Below are positions 51,124-60,194 of a stretch of DNA of 64,000 nucleotides, piece by piece; position 1 is the stretch's first letter; every line of letters begins with the position of its first letter. Where the stretch lies: NCBI RefSeq assembly GCF_000733935.1, contig NZ_JPON01000001.1:3546623-3610622 (forward strand). Direction: 5' to 3'. The notes under the pieces were generated by a model. It did not search any database. It saw only the letters and a program-made list of their open reading frames with translations, and was not told the origin of the DNA. The position numbers were made by a program, and so were the translations under genes. This DNA is from Methylomarinum vadi. GTDB lineage: Bacteria > Pseudomonadota > Gammaproteobacteria > Methylococcales > Methylomonadaceae.

Positions 51124-52212
51124 TCACTTACCAAGCTCCTGCTGGACAAACTTTAGCGTCTGTTCATGCCGTAGTTTGCAGACAACATTTTGATTTGCGA
51201 ACACACCGCTGAATGTTTTCGCCTGTGATTTAGGAACCGCTTTGATCCACTTAACGCCCACAACCCATTCTGATAATTCTTCGTCGTCAGAGTTTTCTCC
51301 GGGCCGCTCTGCTTTAAGTCCGGCATCCAATAATGGGATGTTGCTTTCCGACACAACGAAGTCGCGAATCATCACAGCCGGACTTATTACTTCACCAAAG
51401 CCGACGTAACCAAGTCCTTTCATGTAGGCATAAATCTTATCCCCGATTGATAGACGATGGAGAGCAGATGAATAGCGCTTTCCTTGACCAGCACCTATGA
51501 AGCCGAATTTTATGTTGTCTTCCCAAATGCGATGCGGACCTTCCCCAACGTTCACAAACCAGTATCCAGTCCATTCTCCAGGTATCGAAGCAGCTTTCCG
51601 CTGCTTGATCTCTTTTCGCTCAATATAGTCTTTGGCTTCTGGAAGTGGAATTATGGTTTCTGGTTTAATGAACAGTCCTCCATCTGCGTCGAGATAAGGT
51701 GCAAGCCTTGTACACTGAATATTAACTCCAAACTCTCGCAGCCATAGCACCGCCGATATTACTTCAGAGTTAAATTCTTTCGATGCGAGGATAATGCGCT
51801 GAACGGAATTCAATGACTCAATGTCACCATCAATAAACTCTTCGATTGCCTTAGCAGCATCAGCTTCCGACTTATCCAGATATCCGGCGTATTGTCTGAA
51901 AATCTCCTCGGGAAGAAAGTTTGAACAGTAAGACGCATACTTTATAGCCTGCCATTCAACAGATGCTCCAGAATCATCACGTTTAAGTTCTACAATCACT
52001 AGAGTAGCTGACTTATCAACACATAGAAGATCTAACCGCTTTCCAGAAGGCAAGATCACCTCTTTACCAATAACTAACAATTCCTCACCTAGAATAGTCG
52101 GTGATTTTTCGATCCATTCTTGAATGTCAAAACGTTCCTTCAATCCCAGCTCTGAGAAGCCGGTGGGCTTCAGCTCAATCAAACATTTGTTGTTTATATC
52201 CACTCGAAACAC
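51124..52212 (-). CDS. NucS-like nuclease domain fused to EVE/PUA-like domain
   Basis: A 362-residue protein. Residues 20-110 carry a PD-(D/E)xK nuclease pattern: LPSGKRLDLLCVD (Asp), LVIVELKRDD (ExK) and VEWQAIKYASYC (Gln-x3-Tyr helix), as in NucS-type proteins. A helical middle (SLNSVQRIILASKE) is followed from about 210 by GYWFVNVGEGPHRIWED ... KIYAYMKGLGYVGFGEV, resembling EVE/PUA-like domains that read modified bases. The start is GTG 52212 with GGGAG 9 bases upstream. It lies beside the IS200 tandem array. A role in DNA defence is an inference. Confidence 0.68.
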   Translation of the reverse strand: MFRVDINNKCLIELKPTGFSELGLKERFDIQEWIEKSPTILGEELLVIGKEVILPSGKRLDLLCVDKSATLVIVELKRDDSGASVEWQAIKYASYCSNFLPEEIFRQYAGYLDKSEADAAKAIEEFIDGDIESLNSVQRIILASKEFNSEVISAVLWLREFGVNIQCTRLAPYLDADGGLFIKPETIIPLPEAKDYIERKEIKQRKAASIPGEWTGYWFVNVGEGPHRIWEDNIKFGFIGAGQGKRYSSALHRLSIGDKIYAYMKGLGYVGFGEVISPAVMIRDFVVSESNIPLLDAGLKAERPGENSDDEELSEWVVGVKWIKAVPKSQAKTFSGVFANQNVVCKLRHEQTLKFVQQELGK

Positions 52213-54300: not shown

Positions 54301-55455
54301 TCAGGACTTGCCATCAACCGGAAGCTGAACCAGGTTGTTCATCAAGCCTTTTAGGCCGTCATAAACCGTGATCTTGTCGATGCGGTCGGAGACCCGCTCC
54401 AGCACTTCCAGCTCCTTCAGGCGCAGGATGGTCGGATTGCCTTCCATGACCTTCGCTGTGTTATGCAGCGACCGGGTCGCAGCGGTTTCCTCGCGGCGTT
54501 TGATCAGGTTGGCTTCGGCCGCTTTTTCCGCCTCGACGACCTGGTTCAGGATCGTCTTCATTTCGCCCGGCAGGATGATGTCCTTGACGCCGACGCCGCT
54601 CAGGTGCAAGCCGTAATGGCGGGCCTTGGCCGACACGGTCCGGAAAATATTCTCATTCATCGCATTCTTGTAGGCCAGCAATTCGTCCAAGGTCTTTCCA
54701 CCGATTGTCTCGCGCAGTGCCAATTGCAATTCGCGGTACAGGAAATCGGCGTAATCGGCCAACTGCATCGCCGCCTTCTCGGCATCTTCAACCTTGTAAG
54801 CCGCCGATAGGTTGATCCGCAGGCTGACCCGGTCCTTGGTCAACATTTCCTGGCCGCCGATATCAAGGCTTTGCAGACGCAAATCGACCAGCTTTACGGC
54901 GATATTGCGGTTGTAACGCCAGAAACCGTAACTGGCGGGCGGCAGCAATCCTTCCTTATGGCCGTTGACCAACAACAGGCCGACAGCGTAATCGGGCACT
55001 TCGGCGTAATAAACCATTGCCGCCGCGGCCTGCGCGCTACGGAAATAATCGCTGTGCACCAGCAGGGACAAAACGTTGTCGGCCACGCGATATTCCCGGC
55101 TGATGTCCAGCCGCTCGACCTTAACCTCGGCCGGTTGCCTCCAGAACACATGATAAGTTCCCGGCGGCAGTACGTCGGCCAGTTTGCCGTCGACATAGCA
55201 CAGGCCCAGCTCGGAATCGTTCAATTCATAATCGTCGAAATGATCGCTTTTCAACTGCGGATAGGTGCGCAGCAGAAACTTCGCCAACTTATGCTGGAAT
55301 TTAGGCTGGGCGCAATCGTGAACTTCGGCGCGTAACTCGTTCAACGGGTCGATGAACCAATAGCGTCCCGGCTCCAGCATTTTCTTGAAACTGTTCTTGC
55401 GGAACAACATGGCTTTTTCGTGATCCGCGATTTCGTATGTTTTGATTCCTAACAT
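54301..55455 (-). CDS. Soluble SPFH/slipin-type protein, last gene of the rtc operon
   Basis: A 384-residue SPFH (band-7) protein: LRLQSLDIGGQEMLTKDRVS, YRELQLALRETIGGKTLDEL, AKARHYGLHLSGVGVKDIIL and EAEKAAEANLIKRREETAAT are slipin-like. The N-terminal membrane hairpin usual in slipins is missing. Instead a motif occurs three times, near 13-36 (KAMLFRKNSFKKMLEPGRYW), 82-105 (ELGLCYVDGKLADVLPPGTY) and 157-179 (AVGLLLVNGHKEGLLPPASY). AAGGAG before ATG 55455 sets the start. SPFH genes accompany some bacterial RNA-repair operons; the mechanism is unknown. Confidence 0.8.
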   Translation of the reverse strand: MLGIKTYEIADHEKAMLFRKNSFKKMLEPGRYWFIDPLNELRAEVHDCAQPKFQHKLAKFLLRTYPQLKSDHFDDYELNDSELGLCYVDGKLADVLPPGTYHVFWRQPAEVKVERLDISREYRVADNVLSLLVHSDYFRSAQAAAAMVYYAEVPDYAVGLLLVNGHKEGLLPPASYGFWRYNRNIAVKLVDLRLQSLDIGGQEMLTKDRVSLRINLSAAYKVEDAEKAAMQLADYADFLYRELQLALRETIGGKTLDELLAYKNAMNENIFRTVSAKARHYGLHLSGVGVKDIILPGEMKTILNQVVEAEKAAEANLIKRREETAATRSLHNTAKVMEGNPTILRLKELEVLERVSDRIDKITVYDGLKGLMNNLVQLPVDGKS

Positions 55456-55654
55456 GGTGTTCTCCTTAAATAATGTGAAAATGCCGTGTTGATCGGCATT
55501 TTCCCGTGTGCTTGGATGCACGATCACAATCTATCGCCAAGCGATTGATTTTGTGAGGCCAAGGGCAATCGTATTTTCCTTGGCCGGACGATGAAAAATC
55601 CCGGATGGATTTATTCAGCGCTTTGATGAGAACTCCCTGACGGCGCAGGCGGAA

Positions 55655-55670
55655 CCTTGTTTACGCAAGG
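55655..55670 (-). ncRNA. Hairpin in the rtcA-slipin spacer
   Basis: CCTTG / CAAGG, a 5-bp stem with a 6-base loop, in the 3' part of the structured spacer, about 200 bases before the slipin start. Confidence 0.35.
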
Positions 55671-55809
55671 CAGGAGTCATTGTTCCGAAAGGCGGCGGAA
55701 AAACGCTCGCCATGCAACCTCCTGTCGCGCTGCCGGCATCTTTCGGCCGCCTCCGTCGCGACGCTCGTGTCCTGCGGATCCGCAAGGTTCGGCGCTGTCG
55801 CCGTCATCG

Positions 55810-55861
55810 CCCCGGCAGTCGCCTGCCGGGGCCGGGATTTCCGTGGTGACGCCGAAGCGTC
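55810..55861 (-). ncRNA. Paired GNRA and UUCG tetraloop hairpins
   Basis: Read on the minus strand, GACGC-UUCG-GCGUC (55861-55848) is followed 16 bases later by CCCCGGCAG-GCGA-CUGCCGGGG (55831-55810). Both loops are the stable UUCG and GNRA classes only when the operon strand is transcribed; on the other strand they read CGAA and TCGC. This supports a folded RNA inside the rtc transcript. Confidence 0.65.
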
Positions 55862-55866
55862 GAAAA

Positions 55867-55906
55867 GGGGAGTCGAACCCCAGGCCGAGGCCTTTACCAA
55901 GAGCCT
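55867..55906 (-). ncRNA. tRNA-elbow-like RNA without an anticodon arm
   Basis: On the minus strand a D-arm-like hairpin (AGGC / GCCU, loop with UUGGUAA, 55906-55888) is followed, with only 6 bases between, by a T-arm-like hairpin GGGG-UUCGACU-CCCC (55881-55867). The two conserved elbow loops (GG and UUCGA) are present but no anticodon arm fits between them. This recalls tRNA mimicry in bacterial Y RNAs. Acceptor pairing was not found, so it may also be a decayed tRNA. Confidence 0.5.
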
Positions 55907-55917
55907 TGTTAAGGCGG

Positions 55918-55987
55918 TACTTTGGCCGGACTCGAACCGGCACAACTTGATTATCAGTCAAGGGCTCTACCTTTGAGCTACAAAGTG
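55918..55987 (-). tRNA. tRNA-Ile(GAU)-like gene inside the rtc operon
   Basis: A 70-base cloverleaf on the minus strand. The acceptor CACUUUG / CAAAGUA has six pairs and a C-A mismatch at the first position. D-arm GCUC-AAAGGUA-GAGC, anticodon arm CUUGA-CUGAUAA-UCAAG with anticodon GAU, a 4-base variable loop, and T-arm GCCGG-UUCGAGU-CCGGC. The next bases are CCGCC, so no CCA is encoded. The anticodon loop is that of tRNA-Ile. The mismatch and the place inside an mRNA suggest a tRNA mimic or a special tRNA. Confidence 0.65.
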
Positions 55988-56113
55988 TCGTTCGGATTTT
56001 CGCCGGGAAGCGGTACACAGAAAGCCAGCGGCCTCTGCGCCGGGCCGGCATATTGAACCGGCTCCGCTGATTCGCGGCAAACGTCCAAACCCGTTCGGGC
56101 GGATGCGATCCGC

Positions 56114-57145
56114 CTACATTCTTTTTTCTACCGAAATCCGCCATTGCCGTTTCGGCGCGATTTCCTCGCACTGGATGTCGATGTCCAGAAACTGTTTGAT
56201 GACGACGATATTGGTGCGCACATGTTCGCTGGGCGGACCGGCCACGAAGGAACCGCCTTTGGTCAACGCCAGCGGCAACAACAATTGGTCCGCCAAATGC
56301 TCGCCGACCGGGGCTCCGTTGTTTTGGTAGCGACGCAATTGCTCGACGGCATTGCTGGCAACCCGTTCGGCGCTGACGCCGATCACACCGATGCTGTCGA
56401 TGACTTCCGTCGCATGCCGATAATAACTGCGCAGGGATACCACATTGCCGCCGCCCAACGCCTTGACTTTCAATCTGCCGAAGGCGTCCTCCGGCCAGTT
56501 CAGCTTTTTCCGCAGTCTTTTGATCTCCCGCTCGGCGACATGGGCCGGCAAACCGGCCTCGATACAAACCGCTTCCGCTTTCAGTAATGCGCCTCGTTCG
56601 GTTAAATCGATACGGCAAAAATCCGATTTCGGTTCTATTGTCACGGACCATTGGCCGCCGCCGACCGGATAAAAACCGTAGCGGTCGATTTGCGCCTGAC
56701 AGTCGACGCCTATTTGCCGCAGTATCGGCAAAAAGACCTCGTGAATGAAGTCGTAACTCGGCGCTAACGGATTATGGGTGCCGCCTTCAAGCTGCAAAAG
56801 CGACGGTTTGCCGGCCAACATCAACAGCGGCAACGCGGTTTGGAATATCAACGTGCTGCTGCCGGCGCTGCCGACCGAAAAGCGGTAGTTTCCGGCCTCG
56901 ATTTCGTTCGGCACGAACTGGATATTTTTCGAACCCAGCGATGCGCCTTTGACCTCGGCGTTGCAGATCGCCGCGGCGGCCTGCACGCAAGCCAGATGTT
57001 GTCTCATCAATCCCGGTTTTCGGCGGCCGTTGCGGATATGGCGGATATGCATCGCCCGGCCGGTGCAAGCCGACAGCGACAACGCCGTCCGCAGCACCTG
57101 GCCGCCGCCTTCGCCCTGTGAACCATCTATTTCTATAAATTCCAT
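56114..57145 (-). CDS. rtcA: RNA 3'-terminal phosphate cyclase
   Basis: A 343-residue RtcA that converts RNA 3'-phosphate to 2',3'-cyclic phosphate using ATP through a covalent His-AMP. Motifs: IDGSQGEGGGQVLRTALSLS at the N-terminus, RKPGLMRQHLACVQA, and GSAGSSTLIFQTALPLL. The catalytic His lies in PSEHVRTNIVV near residue 315. ATG 57145 matches the usual N-terminus; an ATG eight codons earlier is possible. It lies 69 bp after rtcB. A hairpin-rich spacer follows the stop, starting with GCGGAU-CGC-AUCCGC. Confidence 0.92.
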   Translation of the reverse strand: MEFIEIDGSQGEGGGQVLRTALSLSACTGRAMHIRHIRNGRRKPGLMRQHLACVQAAAAICNAEVKGASLGSKNIQFVPNEIEAGNYRFSVGSAGSSTLIFQTALPLLMLAGKPSLLQLEGGTHNPLAPSYDFIHEVFLPILRQIGVDCQAQIDRYGFYPVGGGQWSVTIEPKSDFCRIDLTERGALLKAEAVCIEAGLPAHVAEREIKRLRKKLNWPEDAFGRLKVKALGGGNVVSLRSYYRHATEVIDSIGVIGVSAERVASNAVEQLRRYQNNGAPVGEHLADQLLLPLALTKGGSFVAGPPSEHVRTNIVVIKQFLDIDIQCEEIAPKRQWRISVEKRM

Positions 57146-57176
57146 CGCATTGCCTATGTTGTTTTTCATCCCATTT

Positions 57177-57205
57177 GGTGCAATACGGCTATCGCCTATT
57201 GCACC
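57177..57205. repeat. Hairpin in the rtcB-rtcA gap
   Basis: GGTGCAATA / TATTGCACC form a perfect 9-bp stem around an 11-base loop. A REP-like intercistronic element that could tune rtcA relative to rtcB. Confidence 0.6.
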
Positions 57206-57214
57206 CTACGAAAT

Positions 57215-58447
57215 TCATCCCTTTACGCAAACCACCTGCTTCAGGGTATGGACGATCTCGACCAGATCCTGCTGAGCGGCCATCACCGCATCGATGTCCT
57301 TATAAGCCGCCGGCGTTTCGTCGATCACGCTCTTGTCCTTGCGGCACTCGACTCCGGCGGTGGCGGCTTCGTGTTGTGCCAGCGATACCGACTTTTTCGC
57401 CTCGGTCCGAGACATCACCCGGCCAGCGCCATGCGAGCAGCTATGAAAGCTTTCCGAGTTACCCAGCCCCCGGACGATATAGGATTTCGCCCCCATGCTG
57501 CCGGGTATGATGCCCATCTCGCCCAAACCGGCTCTCACCGCGCCCTTGCGGGTCACCATTACTTCCTCGCCGTAGTGCAGCTCGCGGCTGATGTAATTAT
57601 GATGACAATTGACCGCCTCAAGATGAGCCTCGAATTCCAGTTGCAGGCTTTGCCGTATTGCCGACAGCACTCTCGCCATCATCACCTCGCGGTTGATACG
57701 GGCGAACTGCTGCGCCCACTCTACCGCCTCGACGTAATCGTCGAAATGCTTGCTGCCTTCCGGCAGATAAGCCAAGTCGCGGTCCGGCAGATGAATATGC
57801 CAACGCTCCATTTCCTTCTTCGCCAATTCGATGAAATGGCTGCCGATACGGTTGCCGACACCGCGCGAACCGCTATGCAGCATCACCCAAACGGCCTGAT
57901 CTTGGTCCAAACAGACTTCGATGAAGTGGTTGCCGGTGCCCAGCGTTCCCAAATGATTAATGTTGTTGGTGTTCTTCAGCACGCCGTGTTTTTCGGTCAA
58001 CACCGTGAATTGCTCTGACAACGGTTTCCACGCCGCCATCACATCGTCCGGCAAATCGCCCCAGGCACCGATATCGCGTGTGCTTTTCCTAAGACGCTTG
58101 GAGCGTCCATGCGGCACAGCCTGTTCGATCGCGCTACGCACGGCGCTCAGATTATCAGGCAACTGCCCGGCGTCCAATGAGGTCTTGACCGCCATCATGC
58201 CGCAACCCAAATCGACGCCGACTGCGGCCGGAATAACGGCCTTAGTCGTCGCGACCACACTGCCGATCGTCGCGCCTTTTCCTAAATGCACATCCGGCAT
58301 CGCCGCGATCCATTTGTAGATAAATGGCAATTGGGCGATATTCAGCAATTGCCGTTTGGCGGCATCCTCGAATGCTACGCCATGCGTCCAAGCTTTAACC
58401 GGAACGCCGTCGTCTTCTTTTAGTACCTGATAATTGATCTGTGTCAT
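57215..58447 (-). CDS. rtcB: RNA-splicing ligase
   Basis: A 410-residue RtcB, which joins RNA 3'-phosphate or cyclic phosphate ends to 5'-OH ends using GTP and Mn. Asp79 and Cys82 in VDLGCGMMAVKT, GTLGTGNHFIEVCLD, MLHSGSRGVGNRIG and the guanylylated His in FHSCSHGAGRVMSR are all present. AAGGA before ATG 58447 sets the start. First gene of the sigma-54 operon rtcB-rtcA-RNA-slipin. Confidence 0.95.
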   Translation of the reverse strand: MTQINYQVLKEDDGVPVKAWTHGVAFEDAAKRQLLNIAQLPFIYKWIAAMPDVHLGKGATIGSVVATTKAVIPAAVGVDLGCGMMAVKTSLDAGQLPDNLSAVRSAIEQAVPHGRSKRLRKSTRDIGAWGDLPDDVMAAWKPLSEQFTVLTEKHGVLKNTNNINHLGTLGTGNHFIEVCLDQDQAVWVMLHSGSRGVGNRIGSHFIELAKKEMERWHIHLPDRDLAYLPEGSKHFDDYVEAVEWAQQFARINREVMMARVLSAIRQSLQLEFEAHLEAVNCHHNYISRELHYGEEVMVTRKGAVRAGLGEMGIIPGSMGAKSYIVRGLGNSESFHSCSHGAGRVMSRTEAKKSVSLAQHEAATAGVECRKDKSVIDETPAAYKDIDAVMAAQQDLVEIVHTLKQVVCVKG

Positions 58448-58478
58448 AGTCTTTTCCTTGCAAATCACACTCGCTATA

Positions 58479-58496
58479 AAGCAGAAACGATGCCAA
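58479..58496 (-). promoter_or_regulatory. Sigma-54 promoter of rtcB
   Basis: On the minus strand TTGGCATCGTTTCTGCTT has the GG and GC doublets exactly 10 bases apart, the sigma-54 -24/-12 pattern. Transcription would start about 20 bases before the rtcB ATG. AT-rich near-palindromes around 58590-58615 (ATCTA-AA-TAGAT) are candidate RtcR sites. Confidence 0.8.
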
Positions 58497-58616
58497 TTAT
58501 GGATTAGCTGTATTTTCCTTTTATTTTCATAAAGATATGAATTTTACTGGCGGATGCTTCGGCAAGCTCTATACTTTAGGCTATTTGTATCGATAAGTAG
58601 CTATCTAAATAGATAA

Positions 58617-60194
58617 ATGAAAACAGTCGCCATCAGCCTGTTGGGCACAACCCTGGACAACCGAGGCAAAGGCAAGAAACGCTGGGAACGTTGGCGTCCT
58701 ACCGTGTCGTTGTGCCAGCATGAAGACTTGGTGATAGACCGGCTGGAGTTAGTGTTTCAGGACGACTATCAGGCGCTGGCCGATATCGTTACAGCCGACA
58801 TACATGCGATTTCGCCGGAAACCGACGTCCGTCACCATCTGATAGAAATCGATGATCCGTGGGATTTCGAGAACATTTACGGCGCATTGCACGATTTCGC
58901 CCGCGGCTATCGTTTCGATCTTGAGCGCGAGGACTATCTGCTGCACATCACTACCGGCACCCATGTCGCACAGATTTGCTTGTTTCTTTTGAACGAAGCT
59001 CATTACCTCCGGGGACGGCTGATCCAGACCGCGCCGGCCAAACGCGACGAAGCGGCTCCGGCACATTATCAAATTATCGATCTTGACCTGTCGCGCTACG
59101 ACCGTATCGCCTCGCGCTTTTCCCGGGAACACGATGAAGGAACGGTCTATCTGAAGGGCGGAATTCCCACCCGCAACGCCGGTTTCAACAAGACCATCGC
59201 GCAATTGGAACAGGTCTCGCTGCGCTCGAAAGAACCAATTTTGTTGACCGGTCCGACCGGAGCAGGAAAATCGTTGCTGGCGAAGCGCATTTACGAATTG
59301 CGCAAGCAACGCGGACTCGTGACCGGCCAATTGGTCGAGGTCAACTGCGCGACGCTACGCGGCGATAATGCGATGTCGGCTCTGTTCGGCCATGTCAAAG
59401 GCGCTTTCACCGGCGCGGTCAAGGATCGCAAAGGCCTGTTGCTGGAAGCCGACCGCGGCGTGTTGTTTCTGGACGAGATCGGCGAATTGGGTCTGGACGA
59501 ACAAGCCATGCTGCTGCGCGCAATCGAGGACAAACGCTTCATGCCGTTCGGTTCGGACCGGGAAAGCGGCAGCGACTTTCAGTTGATCTCGGGTTCGAAT
59601 CGGAATTTACAAAAGCAAGTCGAAAAAGGGCTTTTCCGAGATGATTTGCTGGCGCGAATCAACTTATGGACCTATGCCTTGCCATCGCTGAAACAGCGCA
59701 TCGAGGATCTGGAACCAAACATCGATTACGAACTGGAAAAATTCGCTGAAAAAGCTGGCGCCTTGGTCAGCTTCAACAAGGCAGGGCGGTCTCGGTATCT
59801 CGCTTTCGCGATATCGCCGGAGGCAGCGTGGAAAGCCAATTTTCGCGATCTAAACGCCAGTATCACCCGCATGGCGACGCTGGCGCCGGGCGGTCGCATC
59901 ACTGCCGAGGTGGTAGACGACGAGGTGGCTTGTCTGCGGCGGAACTGGCAAGCGACAACTGCCGGAGAAAGGGCTGTAGATGTGGGCGTTTATGTCGACC
60001 AGCCGCTGGATCTATTCGAGCAAATTCAATTGGCCGGCGTCATCAAGGTCTGCAAGGAATCGGCTTCGGCCGCCGAAGCAGGTCGACGGCTGTTCGATAT
60101 CAGCCGGCAACAAAAGACGTCGGTCAACGATAGTCACCGCCTGGTGCAGTTTCTGCGCAAATACGGCTTGAAATTCGAGCAGTTGAAGTTTTAA
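58617..60194 (+). CDS. rtcR: RtcR, CARF-domain sigma-54 activator
   Basis: A 525-residue activator divergent from rtcB. Residues 1-180 form the RtcR-type CARF sensor (ISLLGTTLDNRGKG; YLLHITTGTHVAQICLFLL), thought to sense RNA fragments with cyclic phosphate ends. The AAA+ domain follows: Walker A GPTGAGKS near 217, the sigma-54 contact GAFTGA near 262, Walker B VLFLDEIGEL near 283. A C-terminal helix-turn-helix lies near 490-515 (ASAAEAGRRLFDISRQ). Full family length. Confidence 0.95.
   Translation: MKTVAISLLGTTLDNRGKGKKRWERWRPTVSLCQHEDLVIDRLELVFQDDYQALADIVTADIHAISPETDVRHHLIEIDDPWDFENIYGALHDFARGYRFDLEREDYLLHITTGTHVAQICLFLLNEAHYLRGRLIQTAPAKRDEAAPAHYQIIDLDLSRYDRIASRFSREHDEGTVYLKGGIPTRNAGFNKTIAQLEQVSLRSKEPILLTGPTGAGKSLLAKRIYELRKQRGLVTGQLVEVNCATLRGDNAMSALFGHVKGAFTGAVKDRKGLLLEADRGVLFLDEIGELGLDEQAMLLRAIEDKRFMPFGSDRESGSDFQLISGSNRNLQKQVEKGLFRDDLLARINLWTYALPSLKQRIEDLEPNIDYELEKFAEKAGALVSFNKAGRSRYLAFAISPEAAWKANFRDLNASITRMATLAPGGRITAEVVDDEVACLRRNWQATTAGERAVDVGVYVDQPLDLFEQIQLAGVIKVCKESASAAEAGRRLFDISRQQKTSVNDSHRLVQFLRKYGLKFEQLKF

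What the first reader, a model, noticed from the sequence alone, without database searches (positions are those of the whole stretch)
54301..60194. RNA-repair operon carrying its own tRNA-like RNAs and a soluble SPFH protein
Seen: rtcB, rtcA, about 660 bp without a convincing protein gene but full of RNA-like hairpins, then an SPFH gene, all on one strand behind a GG-N10-GC promoter with divergent rtcR. Known: RtcB/RtcA heal and seal cleaved RNA, RtcR has a CARF sensor thought to read cyclic-phosphate RNA ends, and some bacteria place Ro protein and Y RNA genes in this operon. Inferred: the embedded tRNA-like RNAs are substrates, decoys or sensors made only when RtcR fires, and the SPFH protein may scaffold repair. 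I see no Ro (Rsr) gene here.
Basis: partly seen in the sequence, partly recalled or inferred. Interest (0 to 1): 0.88.

Follow-up and report, generated by a model that had tools for sequence, protein, structure and literature searches.

The report
RNA-repair operon with tRNA-mimic RNA
A bacterial RNA-repair operon carries a structured noncoding RNA with a built-in tRNA copy whose anticodon loop changes from species to species, placed next to a gene for an SPFH (slipin) protein that is probably its partner.

Summary
In detail: divergent rtcR, a GG-N10-GC site, rtcB, rtcA, a 658-nt spacer and an SPFH (slipin) gene. The spacer holds one complete tRNA fold (55916-55987, minus strand) between a 5' domain (55988-56090) and a lone T-arm element (55866-55901). 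It is not chance: 104 of 111 slipin loci have such a unit within 1.1 kb upstream (ARAGORN: 62 of 75, against 8 of 510 control windows), and acceptor, anticodon-arm, T-arm and 5'-domain helices covary. The units are not ordinary tRNAs: few have CCA, many lack U33 or a 7-nt loop, and near-identical units rarely share an anticodon (2 of 32 pairs; 41 of 43 for genuine tRNAs). The loop changes little faster than fourfold sites (30/77 vs 597/2098), so diversifying selection is not shown. Best reading: an RtcR-induced SPFH-RNA particle that handles damaged tRNA by tRNA-elbow mimicry; bait for anticodon nucleases is the main rival. From memory, Burroughs & Aravind (2016) already paired SPFH/Band-7 with a "novel tRNA-like molecule" (text not held), so the kind is known; variable-anticodon arrays, the 5' domain and vault-like SPFH architecture may be additions.

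The parts
58617..60194 (+). rtcR, CARF plus sigma54-activator protein, 525 aa, divergent
   Evidence: PF06956 5.4e-83; NF038308 774 bits over cut-off; PADLOC RtcR 1.4e-246
58481..58495 (-). sigma54-type GG-N10-GC site, TGGCATCGTTTCTGC
   Evidence: 8 of 10 consensus letters, shuffle P 0.008; consensus recalled
57215..58468 (-). rtcB RNA ligase (ORF; probable ATG start at 58447)
   Evidence: PF01139 1.8e-132; start read by eye from the sequence
56114..57169 (-). rtcA RNA cyclase (ORF; probable ATG start at 57145)
   Evidence: PF01137 3.5e-78; TIGR03399 over cut-off; start read by eye
55988..56090 (-). 5' domain of the noncoding RNA with its enclosing helix (arms about 56069-56090 and 55988-56011)
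   Evidence: enclosing helix: own arms -19.8 vs arms swapped between loci -12.1 kcal/mol on average over 42 loci, P 1e-14; window -22.8, with 6 of 41 swapped partners as good or better; MFE fold
56012..56068 (-). conserved core of the 5' domain (AGCGG-NN-hairpin with TTC loop, CYGRYGC ... GYGTAYC)
   Evidence: A5, 28 sequences: covariation score 0.543 vs shuffled 0.245, 0/500; number of pairs changed on both sides 6, reached by 46/500; model R2 64.5 bits, but the window is in its training set
55916..55987 (-). complete tRNA-like unit, anticodon loop CTGATAA (GAU), C1-A72 mismatch, C at position 73, no CCA
   Evidence: ARAGORN; RF00005 64.3 bits; R1 71.5 bits, but the window is in its training set
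55903..55915 (-). linker hairpin GCCTTAACAAGGC
   Evidence: similar hairpins follow the last unit in many relatives, seen by eye
55866..55901 (-). T-arm element: short hairpin plus T-arm GGGG-TTCGACT-CCCC
   Evidence: T-stem paired in 26 of 26 sequences, 13 double-change cells, covariation score 0/500; the short hairpin is only 55% paired in the ungapped alignment
55640..55860 (-). GC-rich, strongly folded 3' region; ends not determined
   Evidence: MFE structure and z-score -5.2 of 55640-56090 as a whole; not tested by covariation
55477..55503 (-). inverted repeat GAAAATGCCG-N7-CGGCATTTTC just upstream of the slipin ribosome site
   Evidence: read directly from the sequence; not tested
54301..55455 (-). 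SPFH/Band-7 (slipin) gene, 384 aa from the probable ATG; no obvious transmembrane segment
   Evidence: PF01145 3.9e-26; highest 19-residue hydropathy 1.28; model mean pLDDT 77.6

Best explanation
The locus makes a dedicated RNA-protein unit of the RtcR RNA-repair response. Damaged tRNA activates RtcR (shown by others in Salmonella). Transcription from the sigma54-type site (inferred) yields RtcB and RtcA, a structured noncoding RNA and the SPFH protein, which looks soluble. The RNA has a covarying 5' domain, in most loci one or more modules that copy the tRNA fold, and in the window's subgroup an isolated T-arm element (shown here by comparison). The modules keep the tRNA elbow (D-arm and T-arm) nearly letter for letter while acceptor, anticodon stem and anticodon loop drift, so the elbow is probably what is recognised. 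The most likely recogniser is the SPFH protein, whose gene lies directly downstream in the loci examined (which were found through it). I infer that SPFH oligomers bind this RNA through the elbow mimics and form a particle that holds or sorts tRNAs and their halves for RtcA/RtcB, in the way Ro protein and its tRNA-mimicking Y RNA sit in other rtc operons.
For: Unit within 1.1 kb upstream of slipin, same strand: 95 of 100 sources, 69 of 74 outside the training set, plus 9 of the 11 sources first left out (the other two at about 1.3 kb). ARAGORN alone: 62 of 75 vs 8 of 510 control windows. tRNA helices: 93.6% of cells paired, 152 double-change cells, covariation 0.626 vs 0.185, 0/500. 5' domain score 0/500; enclosing helix P 1e-14; T-arm element score 0/500. 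Elbow near invariant over 79 units with 7-nt loops: D-stem GCTC/GAGC, G19, T-loop TTC-A. The 5'-domain model hits 46 of 93 loci not used to build it. Of 9 strong hits in 201 genomes of the order, 8 lie in genomes with this slipin, 6 of these 8 being training genomes. No obvious membrane segment. RtcR binds cyclic-phosphate tRNA 5' halves (PMC7790460). In Anabaena a slipin gene, rtcB and a 26-tRNA operon are under one repressor (PMC10272220, passages).
Against: No expression, binding or processing data. Of 80 slipin loci with up to 6 kb flanks, 22 show none of rtcR, rtcB or rtcA, so the unit can lie apart from rtc genes. Eight of 12 further Pseudomonas genomes keep slipin and alignable parts of the RNA but have no tRNA unit by ARAGORN or R1; the E. 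coli and Citrobacter forms have no unit either and keep only a T-arm: a whole tRNA copy is dispensable. Genome G118 has the 5' domain with two units but no full-length slipin (best SPFH hit E 2.4e-11). The D-stem hardly varies, so it gives no covariation evidence.
Confidence: 0.45

Rival explanations
1. Bait and amplifier: the tRNA modules offer extra anticodon loops to anticodon nucleases of toxins or phages. Cleaved modules spare real tRNAs, are resealed by RtcB, and their 5' halves with cyclic phosphate feed RtcR. The anticodon changes because the attackers change.
For: Units at least 85% identical outside the loop, both loops 7 nt, share an anticodon in 2 of 32 pairs, not independent, against 41 of 43 pairs for genuine tRNAs. 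In 19 independent pairs at least 80% identical, anticodon sites differ at 32 of 57 vs 157 of 1267 elsewhere, odds ratio 9, P 3e-14. 29 different anticodons in 79 units. RtcR reads cyclic-phosphate 5' tRNA halves made by anticodon-loop cleavage (PMC7790460).
Against: Loop change (30 of 77 sites) is only a little above the fourfold-site rate of slipin (597 of 2098), so diversifying selection is not shown. 37 of 116 units have loops of 4-6 or 8-9 nt (one is a unit cut by a contig end), seven of them GAAA, GCAA or TTCG tetraloops. A34, rare in bacterial tRNAs (recalled; 3 of 101 in the non-ACG control set), occurs in 17 of 79, 3 of them ACG. The YrlA tRNA-like RNA of Salmonella was not cut by the nuclease studied (PMC7790460).
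Confidence: 0.28
2. Processing punctuation: the tRNA folds only attract RNase P and RNase Z, which cut the transcript to free the 5' domain and the slipin mRNA. The anticodon loop is then irrelevant.
For: Elbow and paired acceptor kept, loop free; units are often tandem with little or no spacer; some first units end in CCA.
Against: Acceptor stems are poorer than in other tRNAs of the loci (mean 5.6 vs 6.5 pairs of 7; CCA in 26 of 116 vs 24 of 34), odd for a processing signal. The isolated T-arm element and the E. coli form have no full tRNA.
Confidence: 0.14
3. Backup tRNA: the units are induced spare tRNAs that replace damaged ones.
For: Some loci have long runs of ordinary-looking tRNA genes close by (L055; L104, L117, L124); Anabaena's 26-tRNA operon is under the same repressor as rtcB and a slipin gene (PMC10272220).
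Against: U33 missing in 28 of 79 (though also in 15 of 107 CCA-bearing tRNAs of the loci), loop not 7 nt in 37 of 116, no CCA in 90 of 116. The host has a tRNA-Ile(GAU) with CCA elsewhere. The window unit has C at position 73 and a C1-A72 mismatch.
Confidence: 0.05

Closest known systems
SPFH/Band-7 plus 'novel tRNA-like molecule' of RNA-repair systems (Burroughs & Aravind 2016, NAR 44:8525; abstract recalled, text not held; citation seen)
   Same: SPFH protein with a cognate tRNA-like noncoding RNA in RNA-repair neighbourhoods; proposed there as scaffolding cofactor (recalled)
   Different: I cannot say which details are in that paper; tandem units, the variable anticodon loop, the 5' domain and the vault-like repeats may or may not be
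Salmonella rsr-yrlBA-rtcBA operon (Ro60 homologue plus Y RNAs; PMC7790460, passages seen)
   Same: RtcR-controlled rtcBA with a tRNA-mimicking RNA and a protein partner
   Different: here no TROVE match in the genome; the neighbour is SPFH; the RNA reaches gathering score with no Rfam family except tRNA
P. aeruginosa PaFlo8 SPFH gene in the rtc locus (PMC13086221, one passage seen)
   Same: SPFH gene inside an rtc locus
   Different: the passage mentions no RNA there; the term tRNA does not occur in the main text
Anabaena TrcR regulon: trn operon, rtcB, slipin alr0740 (PMC10272220, passages seen)
   Same: slipin, rtcB and tRNA genes under one translation-stress regulator
   Different: separate loci, tRNA operon on a megaplasmid, no RtcR
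Major vault protein (fold comparison only)
   Same: Foldseek alignments of 415-465 columns, long enough to run beyond the SPFH part, E 3.5e-10 to 3.4e-8 in five listed chains; beta modules, SPFH, long helix
   Different: half the length, TM-score 0.34-0.43 by query, stomatin scores better (E 3.5e-14); no sequence hit to vault proteins at E 0.01

Membership tests
RtcR-controlled rtcBA RNA-repair operon | divergent rtcR, rtcB and rtcA, sigma54-type promoter | tested here: met
   promoter 8 of 10 letters, activity not testable
SPFH/Band-7 plus tRNA-like RNA of RNA-repair systems (Burroughs & Aravind 2016, recalled) | SPFH gene next to a tRNA-like noncoding RNA in an RNA-repair neighbourhood | tested here: met
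   criterion taken from memory of the abstract
SPFH/Band-7 plus tRNA-like RNA of RNA-repair systems (Burroughs & Aravind 2016, recalled) | same RNA consensus as in the paper | not testable with these tools
   paper not held
Bacterial Y RNA with Ro (Rsr) | TROVE-domain partner in the genome | tested here: not met
   no match to PF05731 in the window's genome at E 0.001
Bacterial Y RNA with Ro (Rsr) | match to a described Y RNA family | tested here: not met
   no Rfam family but tRNA at gathering score; in the permissive search of 55400-56200 the next best hit after tRNA is E 0.03, to an unrelated family
Bacterial Y RNA with Ro (Rsr) | tRNA-like module in the RNA | tested here: met
Functional elongator tRNA-Ile | tRNA fold with GAU loop | tested here: met
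Functional elongator tRNA-Ile | paired 1-72, A73 and CCA end | tested here: not met
   C1-A72, C73, no CCA in the DNA; A73 as identity letter is recalled, and CCA could be added after transcription
tmRNA | tmRNA fold with tag frame | tested here: not met
   ARAGORN lists none in the window; no tmRNA family at gathering score
Major vault protein | sequence homology to vault proteins | tested here: not met
   profile search of PDB sequences lists stomatin, QmcA, HflK/C and flotillin (and one hypothetical membrane protein) only
Major vault protein | beta repeats, SPFH shoulder and long helix in that order | tested here: inconclusive
   predicted model and Foldseek; N-terminal coverage inferred from alignment length; vault layout recalled

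The most novel reading that the evidence does not exclude
A bacterial vault-like particle: a soluble SPFH protein with vault-like beta repeats packages an RtcR-induced RNA that displays exchangeable tRNA copies as bait. Lineages swap the anticodon loop to follow the anticodon nucleases they meet; cleaved copies are both the alarm (5' halves for RtcR) and a renewable shield (resealed by RtcB).
Probability: 0.1. Interest if true: 0.92.

Novelty: new member of a known kind. Interest (0 to 1): 0.62.

Why it matters
What RtcB/RtcA repair in bacteria, and what the extra partners in rtc operons do, is open. A structured RNA that copies tRNA, tied to an SPFH protein in many Gamma- and Betaproteobacteria, gives a concrete partner to delete, pull down and cleave. 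A reduced form lies upstream of slipin in nine E. coli copies read, and the slipin locus itself is in 1617 of 5426 complete E. coli genomes. The free anticodon loop on a fixed elbow lets one experiment separate the elbow-mimic and anticodon-bait models.

Tried and rejected
Chance hairpins: rejected by covariation and by position. Ordinary host tRNA-Ile: rejected. Ro/Y RNA: no TROVE match. Rfam hits other than tRNA in the spacer: best E 0.03, all below gathering score, taken as chance. Homologues on phages: none at E 1e-10 in 50,697 records; none in viral contigs with the single-protein search, which finds close relatives only. Diversifying selection on the loop: not shown, because the loop changes only a little faster than fourfold sites. 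My first anticodon control with CCA tRNAs from the loci was too small and did not separate the cases: 6 pairs, 2 with the same anticodon; of 4 independent pairs 2 the same. The larger control, 41 of 43, was fetched with the host tRNA-Ile and so leans to that tRNA. Alignment A6 of the 3' elements was poor and was replaced by the ungapped A7. RNAalifold on A5 adds a helix (columns 3-5 with 26-28) and pairs column 29 with 60 rather than 62, unlike the structure I counted. E. coli gave no anticodon variation: its form has no anticodon arm. For the PDB vault hits only alignment length, not range, is known. rtcB or rtcA loci without slipin were not searched for the RNA.

Literature: of 10 paper searches 9 were answered. 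Their listings, capped at 10-20 rows, showed no paper that I recognised by title or abstract start as being about variable anticodon loops in rtc-linked RNAs. Papers seen as passages found by terms only: PMC10272220, PMC7790460, PMC13086221, PMC7652931, PMC11237479, PMC7159879, PMC9879122, PMC9650030, PMC10630183. Burroughs & Aravind 2016: nothing seen, abstract recalled.
Full report
What is there. The window lies in a 4.34-Mb genome held as one contig. I take its order to be Methylococcales because close named relatives of the loci are Methylobacter, Methylococcaceae and Methylococcales MAGs; this is inference. On the minus strand run rtcB, rtcA, a 658-nt spacer and an SPFH/Band-7 (slipin) gene, with rtcR divergent. 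The site TGGCATCGTTTCTGC at 58481-58495 fits the sigma54 pattern at 8 of 10 letters. The slipin ORF opens at a GTG at 55527, but the ribosome site points to the ATG at 55455.

The RNA. ARAGORN finds one tRNA in 64 kb, tRNA-Ile(GAU) at 55916-55987 minus; Rfam gives it 64.3 bits and nothing else reaches gathering score. It has a C1-A72 mismatch, C at 73 and no CCA, and the genome has a tRNA-Ile(GAU) with CCA elsewhere. The RNA 55640-56090 is 5.2 sd more stable than its shuffles.

Relatives. Full-length homologues of this slipin occur in 11 of 201 genomes of the order and in 21 of 369 of the class sample at E 1e-40, the window's own genome included in both. In these 80, ARAGORN sees a same-strand tRNA within 1.5 kb upstream of slipin in 66. 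In 1.1-kb windows the figures are 62 of 75 (loci with enough upstream DNA) against 8 of 510 control windows of the same loci, P 2e-61. A covariance model R1 of the units (29 sequences) was run first on 100 of 111 sources; 95 of 100 have a unit within 1.1 kb upstream of slipin on its strand. Outside the 26 training sources among them the figure is 69 of 74. Without a unit: L049, L053, L082, L121, and L138, which holds only 231 nt there. The 11 sources first left out to keep to the cap (L050, L055, L070, L072, L088, L104, L117, L122, L123, L124, L131) were run later: 9 have a unit within 1.1 kb, L050 and L131 at about 1.3 kb. Together 104 of 111. Several of these 11 also have ordinary tRNA genes nearby.

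Structure. The tRNA helices covary strongly (93.6% of cells paired, score 0.626 vs 0.185, 0/500); acceptor, anticodon and T stems change on both sides, the D-stem hardly varies. A 5' domain core precedes the first unit: 28 sequences, score 0.543 vs 0.245, 0/500, while the plain number of doubly changed pairs is reached by 46/500 shuffles. Its model R2 hits 46 of 93 loci that were not used to build it at E 0.1 or better, upstream of slipin as far as I checked by eye; 47 of 93 gave no hit. The domain is closed by a helix: own arms pair at -19.8 kcal/mol on average against -12.1 for arms swapped between loci, 42 loci, P 1e-14; in 7 of 42 the own partner is the best and in 23 of 42 in the best tenth. 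In the window's subgroup a lone T-arm follows: T-stem paired in 26 of 26, score 0/500, while its short hairpin is only 55% paired in the ungapped alignment.

Co-occurrence. In the same 201 genomes R2 gives 9 strong hits and 2 weak ones; 8 of the 9 strong are in the 11 slipin genomes, 6 of these 8 being training genomes. One (G118) has the 5' domain and two units without a full-length slipin. Of the 80 loci, rtcB is seen in 57, rtcR (minus strand) in 40, rtcA in 21, none of them in 22 (flanks at most 6 kb). So among slipin loci the RNA is a more constant neighbour than rtcB or rtcA. These loci were chosen by slipin; rtc loci without slipin were not examined. Where rtcR lies within 1.5 kb of the next of rtcB, rtcA or slipin (39 loci), that gene is slipin in 30 and rtcB in 9. 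A sigma54-type site of 9 or 10 letters lies in the gap in 33 of 39; in two of these (L083, L094) it lies at an unlikely place near slipin, and L126 and L130 have nothing better than 5 letters.

Anticodon loop. Of 116 near units 79 have a 7-nt loop; 26 are followed by CCA, against 24 of 34 other tRNAs matched by R1 in those sources. The near set includes a few ordinary-looking tRNAs (for example in L045 and L067) and one unit cut by a contig end (L018). In the 79, U33 is present in 51, and 29 anticodons occur, CAU most often (17). Units at least 85% identical outside the loop have the same anticodon in 2 of 32 pairs, which are not independent. In 19 independent pairs at least 80% identical, anticodon sites differ at 32 of 57 against 157 of 1267 elsewhere; 7 of all 29 independent pairs differ in loop length. 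Genuine tRNAs fetched as control share the anticodon in 41 of 43 pairs; a first, small control gave 2 of 6. Against fourfold sites of slipin the loop is only a little faster: 30 of 77 against 597 of 2098 in 12 independent pairs of equal loop length; four further pairs differ in length. Three Pseudomonas loci (L087, L090, L097) show the pattern best: second units 97-99% identical outside the loop, three different loops.

Exchangeable modules. In a sample of the genus of L087 (Pseudomonas) 13 of 199 genomes have this slipin. Of the 12 besides the query genome, 4 keep tRNA units and 8 have none by ARAGORN or R1, while parts of the flanking RNA remain alignable. In E. coli 1617 of 5426 complete genomes cover at least 80% of a stretch with slipin, a nucleotidyltransferase gene and the DNA upstream. 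In the nine copies read it lies beside yjbD; lysC is in view on the other side in seven and phage genes in two. Their upstream RNA, aligned with one Citrobacter copy, keeps a sigma54-type site and a T-arm but no anticodon arm.

The protein. The predicted model (mean pLDDT 77.6, pTM 0.56) has three similar beta modules (about 28-71, 97-141, 172-215), the last being the start of the SPFH domain, then a long helix. Foldseek ranks stomatin first (E 3.5e-14). Five major vault protein chains are listed at E 3.5e-10 to 3.4e-8 with alignments of 415-465 columns, long enough to run beyond the SPFH part, but with low TM-scores (0.34-0.43). Hydropathy shows no clear membrane segment in the window protein (1.28); 1 of the 22 proteins compared, window included, exceeds 1.6 (threshold recalled).

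Mechanism. Shown by others: RtcR binds tRNA 5' halves with cyclic phosphate (PMC7790460). Shown here by comparison: the RNA, its modules and its place beside slipin. Inferred: co-transcription under RtcR, binding by slipin, and the role in handling broken tRNA. The fixed elbow and free loop favour elbow recognition; bait for anticodon nucleases remains the main rival and the more exciting one.

Novelty. From memory, the abstract of Burroughs & Aravind 2016 names SPFH/Band-7 modules with a cognate novel tRNA-like molecule. The text is not held, so I file this locus as a new member of that kind. Nine searches of the open library listed nothing recognisable on the variable anticodon loops or the 5' domain; this does not show that they are unpublished.

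Noticed in passing
window 52315 to about 54090: Three tandem copies of an IS200-like element (Y1 transposase, 110-aa ORF each; 300-nt blocks 100% identical, spacing 596 and 586) lie just downstream of slipin.
   Followed up: partly
window 51124-52212 -: Next gene beyond the elements: candidate anti-phage protein PDC-S11 (PADLOC E 6e-104) with a weak NucS-like match.
   Followed up: partly
L139, L147-L154, L208; E. coli beside yjbD: 1617 of 5426 complete E. coli genomes cover most of a slipin plus nucleotidyltransferase locus; in the nine copies read it follows a sigma54-type site and a reduced form of the RNA, with no rtcR annotated in the stretches shown.
   Followed up: partly
L123 2429-3747: A Beggiatoa MAG has three 5' domains in a row upstream of one slipin, with tRNA units whose loops include TGA three times and CTT.
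   Followed up: no
L055, L104, L117, L124: Runs of ordinary-looking tRNA genes, many ending in CCA, next to this slipin, as if replacement tRNAs travel with it.
   Followed up: no
near units, anticodon position 36: T36 occurs in 53 of 79 units with 7-nt loops, so the anticodons lean to NNU; A37 (63 of 79) and A38 (69 of 79) are also frequent.
   Followed up: no
L171 1501-1724: 5' domain with two tRNA units in genome G118, which has no full-length slipin (best SPFH hit E 2.4e-11); ARAGORN lists no tRNA there although R1 finds both units.
   Followed up: partly
window 55477-55503: Inverted repeat directly upstream of the slipin ribosome site; could be an attenuator or processing hairpin.
   Followed up: no
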